46,652 bases of DNA from Treponema sp. UBA3813 (GTDB lineage: Bacteria > Spirochaetota > Spirochaetia > Treponematales > Treponemataceae): positions 1-46,652 of the forward strand of contig DFEB01000022.1 of NCBI GenBank assembly GCA_002368605.1, in the 5' to 3' direction. Each line of letters opens with the position of its first letter. Within the stretch, counting starts at the first letter, position 1. Position numbers and translations under genes: made by a program. The notes beneath the pieces are model-generated. The model worked only from the letters and a program-made list of their open reading frames with translations, ran no database searches and was not told the origin of the DNA. This document shows positions 37,581-40,665 of this stretch, in pieces.

Positions 37581-37608
37581 TTGAATTACTCAGATTCTAC
37601 ATTATACT
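37581..37608 (+). promoter_or_regulatory. Promoter for the poly-G lipoprotein gene
   Basis: TTGAAT (37581-37586), 16 bases, TATACT (37603-37608), followed by GAGG (37616-37619) and ATG 37626. It lies back to back with the metalloprotease promoter, ten bases away. Confidence 0.6.
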
Positions 37609-37625
37609 ATATTATGAGGTTATAT

Positions 37626-38437
37626 ATGAAACATTCATTTATAAAAAGTCTTTTTTATTTCGTGGCATTACTTCCATTTAGTTTCACATTAGATTCCTGC
37701 TCTGACCTGGAGACGGGGGGGGGACGGTCTCCTTTGAAATTTCTCCATCTCTTTATTCAAATGCCCGTGATGCAATAATACAGAATCCAGACAGCCCTCT
37801 TGTATATATTCCTGTCATTCTCCGGGGAGATTATTCTGCGTCGCAAGTCATTTCTTTTGAACTAGATTCTGATAGCCCCAACTGTAGAGCAACATTTGAC
37901 TCTGTTCCAGTCGGCTCAAATGTTTACCTTGAGGCAAACTGTTTTTTGCCTGACGGAAGTTGGTATTACACAGGAACAAGCTCATCGTTTACCGTAGAAG
38001 CAGGCGAAAATACGGTAACTGTCAAAATGAAAGAAATCAATAACGATGTAGAAAATATTCCGATTTCAGTGACCTCTGCTTATTGTCCTAACCCAAGCGA
38101 GCCTTCCAATTTAGTAGGAATTGGAGGACTAGACACAACCGGAAATTTAATAATTGATAACGACGGATTTTTTGAGCTTATGACAAATGACGTATCAATC
38201 TCAAAAGGAAAATGGCGGGGGTCAGCAAACCAAGGCGGAACGCTCTACCTTACGGAATACATTTACTCATCTATCGTCCCCCCAGACACCTCTGAACCAA
38301 GCATACAAATGGTCTATCTTGACAAGACAATCATCGTCACCTCACTAAGCGAGATTCCTGTTCAAATAAATAGCGACGGGTACTTCAGATTTACCCTGAA
38401 AAATGGCGCAATTATCAGCGGCAATGTCGCCCCATAA
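37626..38437 (+). CDS. Lipoprotein gene interrupted at a poly-G tract (candidate phase-variable)
   Basis: ATG 37626 has a good ribosome site (GAGG, six-base spacer) and promoter. It opens with a lipoprotein signal ending LDSC (C25), then SDLET and a run of nine G. As written, the frame stops after 50 residues at 37778. Beyond the tract the frame one base away is open from at least 37724 to the stop at 38437 and reads as a normal exported beta-rich protein (SPLVYIPVILRGDYSASQVI, VGSNVYLEANCFLPDGSWYY, DNDGFFELMTNDVSISKGKW). Ten G would join the parts into 270 residues and seven G into 269. So the gene is off here by slippage, or the tract was miscounted. Function unknown; composition suggests a surface lipoprotein. 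Confidence 0.82.
37715..37723 (+). repeat. G9 homopolymer tract in lipoprotein coding sequence
   Basis: Nine consecutive G, the longest G or C run in the window, five codons after the lipobox cysteine. Its length sets which of the frames continues. Confidence 0.95.
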
Positions 38438-38466: not shown

Positions 38467-38495
38467 TTGCTCATTTCTCATCAGTCATTTATAAT
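38467..38495 (+). promoter_or_regulatory. Promoter for the helicase gene, nearly leaderless
   Basis: TTGCTC (38467-38472), 17 bases, TATAAT (38490-38495). Predicted +1 near 38502, four bases before ATG 38506; there is no ribosome site. Confidence 0.6.
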
Positions 38496-38505
38496 TCTAC
38501 TTCCA

Positions 38506-40665
38506 ATGACCGATTTATCAGACTTAAAGAACGAACTCAACCCTGAGCAGTACGAAGCCGTCATGACCATTAACGGCGCCATTCTCATAATTGCAGGAGC
38601 CGGAAGCGGAAAAACCCGCGTAATCACATTCCGAATCGCCCACATGCTGGACGCAGGCGTTCCCCAGAGCGCGATTCTTGCCCTCACCTTCACCAACAAG
38701 GCCGCAAAGGAAATGAGCGAGCGAATCAAGGAACTCACTGGCAAAAAACTGCCCCTTCTCACCGTCTCCACTTTCCACGCTTTCGGAGTGAGGATTTTGC
38801 GGCAGGAAATCGGGCTTTTGGGCTACCGGGAAAATTTTTCGATTTACGACGAGACTGACCGGGCTTCACTCATAAAAGAGACCGGCCGGGAACTCGCATA
38901 TTCTCCAGATGCTCTGGATGTCTATCAGGTGGGAATTTTAATCTCCGACATAAAGACCGGGCGCAAGCACTGGACAATCGAAAACGAAATGTACAAGGAG
39001 CTTTACGAGGGCTATCAGGAGGGTCTAAAACTCTACAATGCGGTGGATTTTGACGACCTCATCACCCTTCCCATTAAGATTTTCCGTGAATTCCCCGAAG
39101 TCCTGGCAAAATACAAGGAACGCTACAAGTACATCATGGTGGACGAATTTCAGGACACCAGCCACCAGCAGTACGAATTCATGCGTCTTCTGGCCGAGAA
39201 CAATGTTGCGGTAGTCGGTGACGATGACCAATCCATCTATTCATGGCGGGGAGCTGACTACCAGAACATCATAAATTTTGAAAAAGATTTTAAGGACGTA
39301 AAGGAAATCCGCCTTGAGCAAAATTACCGCTCAACAGGCACAATCCTTGCGGCGGCAAACGGAGTCATAAAGCACAACACCAACCGCAAGGACAAGGAAC
39401 TCTGGAGCGGAAACGGCGACGGAAAGCCCATTGAAATCTACATGCCCGACAACGAGACGGCAGAAGCGGCTTTTATCGTGGAGTCAATTCAGGCCACTTC
39501 AATTACCGAAAAACGCAAATACGACGATTTCTGCGTTCTCATGCGGGCAAACACCCAGTCCAGGGCAATAGAAGAAGCTTTTTTGGCCGAGAACATTCCC
39601 TACACGATGAGTGGCGGCACTTCATTTTTCCAGCGCAAGGAAATCAAGGACATAATAAGCTATCTCCGTGTCATTTCAAACCACGACGATGACGTGAACC
39701 TGCTTAGAATCATAAACACGCCCCGAAGGGGAATCGGCCGGGCGACCATCGAAAAACTAAACGAAATCGCAAAGAACCTCTCCTGCTCCCTCTGGGAAGC
39801 CATCAACGCCCTTTTGGAAGTGGGCGACAACGAGGCGGATTTATTCATGTCAGGCCGCTCGTACACTGCCAGTAACAGCTCGCACATTGCCAGTAACGGA
39901 GCACACCCTGTCATTGCCGGGCTTGACCCGGCAAACTCCCCCGGCAAGTATTCTGACTTCGACGACGAGGATTTTTCGGAAGGCACCAAGCAGAACCTCA
40001 AGGCCTTCGTTGACATAATCGAATCGAACAAATCAATGCTGGGCGGTCACGGACTTTCAAAAAAAGTGCGAACTATGGTGGAAAATATCCGCTACATGGA
40101 CTATCTGATTGGCGAAAATCCAAAGTCAGAAAAAGCAGCCCGCTTCAAAATGCTCAACATCGAAAGCCTGATTGGCTCAATCGAACGCTGGGAAAACAAT
40201 CCGGAGTCCGGCGAGCCAACCCTTTACAACTACCTCAACCGAATCACCCTTTTAAGCCGGGACGACATGGACGATGACGAGAATCTTGGAAAAGTGAACC
40301 TGATGACCATTCACGCCTCAAAAGGCTTGGAATTCCCGGTGGTTTTCATTGCGGGATGTGAAGAAGGTCTCATTCCCCACGGGCGTGCCGTTGACGAGGG
40401 AGGAGACGCTGCTGTAGAGGAAGAGCGAAGGCTTTTTTATGTTGCAATCACGAGGGCAAGGGACAAACTTTTTATTTCAAGCTGCCGAAGCCGCCGCCGT
40501 CAGAACAGCGTTGTCGAAAGCCAGCCCAGCCGCTTTTTGGACGAGATTCCGTCTCATCTGGTTCAGTACCACGAGCCACAAAAAGAAGTCAGCGCGGACA
40601 TGGCCATTGATTTGCTTCAGCAGATGAAAAAGAAATTCTCCGCACCGAAAGTTCCTGGATTTTGA
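38506..40665 (+). CDS. UvrD/PcrA/Rep-family superfamily 1 DNA helicase
   Basis: 719 residues, a normal length for the family. ATP-dependent 3'-5' DNA helicase for repair and replication restart. All motifs are visible in order: IIAGAGSGKTRV (I), TFTNKAAKEM (Ia), VDEFQDTSHQQYE (II), VGDDDQSIYSWRGAD (III), EQNYRSTG (IV), LMTIHASKGLEFPVVF (V) and FYVAITRARDKL (VI). I start at ATG 38506; an upstream TTG at 38467 is the -35 box of the promoter. Residues about 448-485 hold a foreign-looking segment (two TASNSSH-like heptads and HPVIAGLDPAN) encoded by an inserted palindromic repeat in the 2B region. Which family member it is (UvrD, PcrA or Rep) I cannot settle. Confidence 0.93.
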   Translation: MTDLSDLKNELNPEQYEAVMTINGAILIIAGAGSGKTRVITFRIAHMLDAGVPQSAILALTFTNKAAKEMSERIKELTGKKLPLLTVSTFHAFGVRILRQEIGLLGYRENFSIYDETDRASLIKETGRELAYSPDALDVYQVGILISDIKTGRKHWTIENEMYKELYEGYQEGLKLYNAVDFDDLITLPIKIFREFPEVLAKYKERYKYIMVDEFQDTSHQQYEFMRLLAENNVAVVGDDDQSIYSWRGADYQNIINFEKDFKDVKEIRLEQNYRSTGTILAAANGVIKHNTNRKDKELWSGNGDGKPIEIYMPDNETAEAAFIVESIQATSITEKRKYDDFCVLMRANTQSRAIEEAFLAENIPYTMSGGTSFFQRKEIKDIISYLRVISNHDDDVNLLRIINTPRRGIGRATIEKLNEIAKNLSCSLWEAINALLEVGDNEADLFMSGRSYTASNSSHIASNGAHPVIAGLDPANSPGKYSDFDDEDFSEGTKQNLKAFVDIIESNKSMLGGHGLSKKVRTMVENIRYMDYLIGENPKSEKAARFKMLNIESLIGSIERWENNPESGEPTLYNYLNRITLLSRDDMDDDENLGKVNLMTIHASKGLEFPVVFIAGCEEGLIPHGRAVDEGGDAAVEEERRLFYVAITRARDKLFISSCRSRRRQNSVVESQPSRFLDEIPSHLVQYHEPQKEVSADMAIDLLQQMKKKFSAPKVPGF
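39850..39957 (+). repeat. Palindromic repeat inserted in frame in the helicase gene
   Basis: Two 21-bp near-copies around CATTGCCAGTAAC (about 39865-39906) are followed by a perfect 8-bp palindrome TTGCCGGG/CCCGGCAA (39914-39921, 39927-39934). The sequence around it, coding for HPVIAGLDPAN, matches what I remember as a very common translated intergenic repeat in many bacterial genomes. It keeps the frame open. Confidence 0.7.

What the first reader, a model, noticed from the sequence alone, without database searches (positions are those of the whole stretch)
37626..38437. Poly-G switch in a surface lipoprotein gene
A G9 tract lies just after the lipobox of an otherwise intact lipoprotein gene with good promoter and ribosome site. 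As written it is out of frame: 50 residues, then stop. One more G or two fewer joins it to a long open frame of normal protein composition (269-270 residues). Poly-G tracts are a known on/off device in treponemal surface genes, so this is a candidate phase-variable lipoprotein caught in the off state.
Basis: partly seen in the sequence, partly recalled or inferred. Interest (0 to 1): 0.75.

Follow-up and report, generated by a model that had tools for sequence, protein, structure and literature searches.

The report
Poly-G switch in a rumen-Treponema lipoprotein
A run of nine Gs breaks a surface-lipoprotein gene of a rumen spirochete out of frame, and similar runs sit at the start of many lipoprotein genes in its relatives, so it is most likely an on/off switch caught in the off position, of a kind already known from the syphilis spirochete and other bacteria.

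Summary
A G9 run (37715-37723) follows a signal-peptide-like start; the start frame stops after 50 codons; a 237-codon frame follows that has no start codon of its own before 37946. An intact paralog and a relative show that the two pieces are one gene; mismatches to the paralog by codon position (63/46/101) show that the downstream frame evolved as protein.

G runs of 9 or more are in excess in this genome (9 seen, about 0.6 extrapolated) and occur in 185 of 196 genus genomes. In eight genomes lipoprotein N-termini were detected at 25 of 113 tracts and 42 of 1336 control positions. A hand-picked set of 28 in-gene lipoprotein tracts reads 17 in frame, 11 out. In Treponema ruminis RU1, a complete genome, four of six such runs lie at lipoprotein 5' ends.

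Best reading: phase-variable lipoprotein, off in this assembly. Not shown: length variation at this very tract (no reads, no second strain). Against: atypical lipobox, weak promoter, gene absent beside the same neighbours in relatives. The kind is known; the lipoprotein-centred repertoire in rumen Treponema was not found in the papers searched.

The parts
37581..37608 (+). promoter-like site TTGAAT-16-TATACT (weak, 9 of 12)
   Evidence: consensus match only, region total not clearly above shuffles
37616..37619 (+). ribosome-binding site GAGG, 6 bases before the start codon
   Evidence: sequence
37626..37778 (+). 5' piece of the lipoprotein gene as it reads in this assembly: 50 codons and a stop
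   Evidence: residues 1-29 align with the N-terminus of the intact paralog, SCSDLE identical
37626..37700 (+). signal peptide ending at the presumed lipidated Cys25 (codon 37698-37700; lipobox TLDSC, atypical)
   Evidence: paralog has FYSC, other family members FVSC, FASC, LFSC and similar
37715..37723 (+). G9 tract, out of register with the downstream frame
   Evidence: aligned with GGAGGGTGG in the intact paralog
37724..38437 (+). downstream frame, 237 codons and stop: body of the lipoprotein
   Evidence: 47% identical to intact paralog C38:1431-1907; mismatches by codon position 63/46/101 over 151 codons
34776..37535 (-). divergent neighbour, 919 aa, no Pfam hit (HELTH motif seen by eye)
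   Evidence: with the next gene it marks the empty site in relatives
38467..40665 (+). downstream neighbour, UvrD-type helicase
   Evidence: Pfam PF00580, PF13361

Best explanation
This is an accessory lipoprotein gene of a rumen Treponema (T. ruminis clade) whose translation is switched by slipped-strand changes in a poly-G tract just after the presumed lipidation site. With nine Gs, as assembled, ribosomes run out of frame and stop after 50 codons, so no mature lipoprotein is made: the off state. Cells whose tract has a length in register would make the full protein. It is one locus of a repertoire in which long G/C tracts sit in signal peptides, after lipoboxes, or between -35 and -10 of lipoprotein genes, and also in a glycan-type gene cluster. 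Shown: the tract, the split gene, its single-gene origin, the excess of such tracts in this genome, their association with lipoprotein starts in relatives, and both frame states among relatives. Inferred: slippage at this tract, reversibility, and exposure of the protein at the cell surface.
For: Single gene: intact paralog MKSH...SCSDLETEGGKVNLSF and a G023 relative SCSDFSDKETGSVSFSLSPSL (L239) match the two pieces end to end. Coding constraint downstream: 63/46/101 mismatches by codon position. Excess of long runs: 9 v 0.6. Own genome: a second lipoprotein-like gene with a C11 tract out of frame (C70), and on C32 a methyltransferase with G10 out of frame plus two in-frame G9 genes (FkbM-type methyltransferase, SIS protein) beside an epimerase and a TPP enzyme. 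Association with lipoprotein N-termini: 25 of 113 tracts v 42 of 1336 control positions, odds ratio 8.75, p = 1.7e-12 (controls are up to 20 positions per locus, so not independent, and at least one tract hit, L115, looks false). States: 17 in frame, 11 out among 28 hand-picked tracts. Length differences between like copies: G10 v G11 in two G061 stretches otherwise identical over about 170 bases, and G10 v G9 in neighbouring G061 lipoprotein paralogs with opposite frame states. Related proteins, different tract positions (read by eye): G107 G9 in frame, G059 G8 at a frame break, G015 G8 inside TTGACG-17-TATAAT, G129 G7 in the signal peptide. T. ruminis RU1: 4 of 6 runs at lipoprotein 5' ends, two in frame, one out, one in a promoter-like spacer.
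Against: No reads and no second strain of this species were available, so length variation here is untested. Of 30 loci with relatives of the paralog (of 66 matches listed) only 3 had a G/C run of 7 or more. The gene is absent between the same neighbours in G023, G113, G107 and G109, and no relative of P0002 was found in 25 Treponema/Spirochaetaceae loci around this helicase gene (at most 2 kb upstream, less or none in a few, some from the same genomes), so a conserved switch at this place is not supported. Atypical lipobox, weak promoter. The detector fired at 0 of 9 own-genome tracts; it missed this gene and the C70 gene. Seven of the nine own runs of 9 or more are not in lipoprotein genes, and 11 of 196 genus genomes have no 9-G match. 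The AC..TA context of many G061 tracts is absent here.
Confidence: 0.72

Rival explanations
1. Decaying pseudogene: the gene arrived recently, lost its frame at a G-rich codon stretch, and is drifting; the G run is incidental.
For: Accessory gene with an empty site in relatives, atypical lipobox, weak promoter. The tract aligns with GGAGGGTGG of the paralog, so it could have formed from existing glycine codons.
Against: No stop in 237 codons of the downstream frame, codon-position pattern of a constrained protein, and the break falls in a 9-G run, a class in strong excess in this genome and associated with lipoprotein starts in relatives.
Confidence: 0.14
2. Assembly or consensus error: the true tract has another length and the gene is constitutively intact.
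For: The genome is a fragmented draft of 83 contigs, 88.5% complete, and homopolymers are error-prone (recalled); some tracts in related drafts lie at contig ends.
Against: Nine bases are usually within short-read accuracy (recalled). Out-of-frame lipoprotein tracts also occur in T. ruminis RU1 (L337) and in the single-contig genome G143 (L171). An error would not explain the excess of the tracts, and a tract of another length would still be a candidate switch.
Confidence: 0.08
3. Programmed slippage: RNA polymerase or ribosome slips on the tract so that some full-length protein is always made from the out-of-frame allele.
For: Long homopolymers can cause transcriptional slippage (recalled); the tract is at the right place to give two products.
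Against: Relatives carry such tracts in frame as well as out of frame and at promoter-like spacers, where frameshifting has no role. Not tested directly; no frameshift-stimulating structure was sought.
Confidence: 0.06

Closest known systems
Treponema pallidum poly-G phase variation (tpr genes, tp0126, tprL)
   Same: Poly-G tract of similar length (8 and 10 in the tprL constructs), surface-protein genes, treponeme; for tp0126 a 17-base -35/-10 distance is described as optimal (PMC7864442, passages read). Tracts inside 17-base promoter-like spacers also occur in this genus (G015, by eye; G061 L135 and L137).
   Different: The window tract is in the coding sequence and would act on translation; the protein has no Pfam or NCBIfam match that passes, so there is no sign that it is a Tpr protein; the organism belongs to a rumen clade.
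Translational homopolymer contingency genes of Campylobacter, Neisseria and Helicobacter
   Same: Coding homopolymer near the 5' end, frame decides expression, several loci per genome, glycan genes among them (general knowledge; large SSR repertoires in these and in T. pallidum are named in review PMC11868660, passages read).
   Different: Here lipoprotein signal peptides and the stretch after the lipidated Cys are prominent targets.
Homopolymeric-tract counts in cultivated treponemes (PMC8049484)
   Same: Counts tracts of seven or more in treponemes including T. ruminis RU1 (12 of 34 passages read).
   Different: It reports T. ruminis with the fewest tracts and, in the passages read, does not place tracts in lipoprotein genes; here four of its six G/C runs of 9 or more lie at lipoprotein 5' ends.

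Membership tests
Simple-sequence contingency (phase-variable) locus | homopolymer long enough to slip, in excess over chance | tested here: met
   G9; genome run lengths 9 v 0.6 expected; within the window alone only mildly unusual
Simple-sequence contingency (phase-variable) locus | tract placed so that its length decides frame or promoter spacing | tested here: met
Simple-sequence contingency (phase-variable) locus | length varies between cells or strains at this locus | not testable with these tools
   no reads, one genome per species; only like copies elsewhere differ
Simple-sequence contingency (phase-variable) locus | reversible on/off expression | not testable with these tools
   needs culture or proteomics
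T. pallidum tpr-type promoter poly-G switch | tract between -35 and -10 | tested here: not met
   tract begins 89 bases after the start of the coding sequence; not among the 12 promoter-spacer hits
Bacterial lipoprotein | signal peptide with lipobox | tested here: inconclusive
   MKHSFIKSLFYFVALLPFSFTLDSC: charged start and hydrophobic stretch present, Asp at -2 atypical; detector missed it; paralog FYSC, several relatives closer to consensus
Known Pfam/NCBIfam/PDB protein family | profile or sequence match | tested here: not met
   P0002: best Pfam hit E = 0.11, 13.1 bits against a cut-off of 27; none in NCBIfam. Paralog: none in Pfam, NCBIfam or PDB sequences

The most novel reading that the evidence does not exclude
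Rumen and gut Treponema carry a large phase-variable lipoproteome: G/C tracts of 9 or more are repeatedly set into the signal peptide, the post-lipobox linker or the promoter spacer of lipoprotein genes, so each cell shows its own combination. In part of the clade the tracts stand in a preferred context (AC-Gn-TA: 16 of 36 in G061 against 1 of 66 short runs, 4 of 22 against 0 of 34 in G113), which hints at a sequence-guided way of making new switches; the AC half is rare in four single-contig genomes (2 of 38) while TA is common there (26 of 38).
Probability: 0.45. Interest if true: 0.65.

Novelty: new member of a known kind. Interest (0 to 1): 0.5.

Why it matters
A 2025 review speaks of a restriction of multi-locus phase variation to pathogens that may reflect database bias (PMC11868660; a passage cut at its start). 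A clade of rumen Treponema with such tracts on many lipoproteins would suggest that the device serves life in the gut (phage, competitors, mucosal immunity, substrate surfaces) and not only disease. T. ruminis RU1 is a named strain with a complete genome, so the claim is directly testable.

Tried and rejected
Same-locus comparison: the gene is missing between its neighbours in G023, G113, G107 and G109 and no relative lay in the 25 helicase loci, so no ortholog could show another tract length. The genome-contig scan with P0002 found nothing (very near genomes may be left out). The C70 lipoprotein search gave only distant relatives (the best match outside the own genome 40% identical), useless for tract length. 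Hairpin idea: the tract is flanked by GGAGAC/GTCTCC; re-paired flanks reached the observed mean stem in 0 of 300 trials for own plus G023, 24 of 300 for G113, 268 of 300 for G061, 132 of 300 for four single-contig genomes and 14 of 300 pooled, so it is not a general rule and was dropped. Automated frame calls were poor near short N-termini (the window gene itself was missed) and were replaced by reading from start codons. The 28 genes there were picked by hand, are not exhaustive, leave out the G059 gene (run of 8), and the two G107 genes were scored by an open frame across the tract without a start-codon check.

Full report
WHERE IT IS. The window is contig C19 of a draft genome of 2.60 Mb in 83 contigs, 88.5% complete. 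Its helicase is 94 to 91% identical (best segment) to Treponema MAGs, mostly from roe deer and goat forestomach, and 91% to Treponema ruminis RU1 (nearest genomes may be left out there, and no T. pallidum record is among the 77 loci listed). So this is an uncultivated rumen-type Treponema of the T. ruminis clade.

THE OBSERVATION. The G9 tract, the 50-codon product and the 237-codon downstream frame are as described. The ribosome site is fair, the promoter weak, the lipobox TLDSC atypical. The downstream frame has no start codon before 37946, so without the 5' piece it has no signal peptide.

ONE GENE. The own genome holds an intact paralog of 274 codons on C38. Its N-terminus matches the 5' piece (29 residues, SCSDLE identical; 2 of 1000 shuffles score as high) and its body the downstream piece (47% identity). 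At the DNA level the tract aligns with GGAGGGTGG in the paralog, where the protein reads ETEGGK; the window is out of register there. Over 151 aligned codons mismatches are 63, 46 and 101 at positions 1, 2 and 3, and 43 codons with the same residue differ. A relative in G023 reads SCSDFSDKETGSVSFSLSPSL, again joining the two halves of the window gene.

GENOME-WIDE TRACTS. From overlapping counts (233, 53, 26 matches to 6, 7, 8 G) the runs of at least 6, 7, 8, 9, 10, 11 number 180, 27, 13, 9, 3, 1. The step from 6 to 7 predicts 0.6 runs of 9 or more; nine are seen (P = 2e-8). Two of the nine are in lipoprotein-like genes, both out of frame: this one, and one on C70 with a C11 tract 28 residues after the Cys of MFKKLFPIAILFCLFFPSC. 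Three are in one cluster on C32: a methyltransferase with G10 out of frame, and in-frame G9 in an FkbM-type methyltransferase and a SIS protein, beside an epimerase and a TPP enzyme. The other four are in frame in other genes or between genes.

RELATIVES. In 196 genus genomes 185 have at least one 9-G match, from 0 to 218 matches per genome. I fetched the runs of 9 or more of G113 (23), G061 (36), G023 (7), G143 (8) and G067 (16), all that the counts imply, and 7 each of G072 and G132, where the capped place list left a few out (20 of 23 and 23 of 25 matches covered); with the 9 own ones that makes 113 tracts. A detector of lipoprotein N-termini fired at 25 of 113 tracts and 42 of 1336 control positions of the same loci. 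It is strict and missed both own-genome lipoproteins; at least one hit (L115) looks false. By hand I listed 28 in-gene lipoprotein tracts: 17 in frame, 11 out: own 0/2, G113 2/1, G061 8/5, G023 0/1, G143 0/1, G072 2/0, G132 1/0, RU1 2/1, G107 2/0 (in frame/out). In G061 two neighbouring lipoprotein paralogs have G9 in frame and G10 out, and two stretches identical over about 170 bases carry G10 and G11. Tracts also sit between -35-like and -10-like hexamers: 12 of 224 tract-strands against 4.7 in flank shuffles.

RELATED PROTEINS. Among 30 loci with relatives of the paralog (66 matches listed), 3 have a run of 7 or more, each in a different place: promoter-like spacer in G015, signal peptide in G129, a frame break in G059. 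Two neighbouring G107 genes carry G9 in frame about 33 residues after the Cys; one of them is in the list, the other resembles it by eye. Tracts thus come and go at different points of related genes.

COMPLETE GENOME. T. ruminis RU1 has six runs of 9 or more. Two lie in frame in signal peptides of two similar lipoproteins, one out of frame in a third lipoprotein, and one within a 19-base spacer between TTGACA and TATAAT upstream of a fourth; two are elsewhere (read by eye). This answers the draft-assembly worry for the phenomenon, though not for the window tract.

WHAT REMAINS OPEN. Nothing here shows that this tract changes length. The gene is an accessory insertion: four relatives have its two neighbours with only a short gap between them. 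A young gene with an atypical lipobox could be decaying; I give that 0.14.

LITERATURE. From the listings of searches in the held open-access library, the treponeme work on poly-G phase variation concerns T. pallidum and its subspecies, and one paper counts tracts in cultivated treponemes (PMC8049484, passages read). I read passages of three papers only. Subscription papers and preprints are mostly not held, so this is no proof of novelty.

SCORE. The mechanism is a known kind; this locus is a good new member. The wider pattern in rumen Treponema, with a named strain at hand, lifts the interest to 0.5.

Noticed in passing
G061 loci L125-L155, G113 loci L105-L124, L163, L164: Long G tracts have a preferred context AC-Gn-TA: 16 of 36 in G061, 4 of 22 in G113, 1 of 7 in G023 and 0 of 6 in the own stretches looked at, against 1 of 66, 0 of 34, 0 of 21 and 0 of 14 short runs. 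No explanation.
   Followed up: partly
L071 (own genome C32:25000-41215): Three tracts (G10, G9, G9) in one glycan-type cluster, one of them out of frame at the start of a methyltransferase gene.
   Followed up: partly
L070:5300-7038 (own genome C70): Second lipoprotein-like gene with a C11 tract 28 residues after its Cys, out of frame.
   Followed up: partly
L173, L174, L179 (G072) and L186 (G132): Four similar places in two species with a tract of 10 or 15, in two of them seen at the start of a short ORF, each near a long protein that looks like a chemotaxis receptor by eye.
   Followed up: partly
L123, L125, L156: Similar regulator-like proteins in three species carry a tract mid-gene; in G113 the best frames on its two sides differ, in G061 and G023 they agree.
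   Followed up: partly
window 37709-37714 and 37727-37732: Six-base inverted repeat GGAGAC/GTCTCC around the G9 tract; not a general rule.
   Followed up: yes
L106, L137, L146: Three tracts lie within 150 bases of contig ends, as might be expected if length mixtures or repeats break assembly.
   Followed up: no
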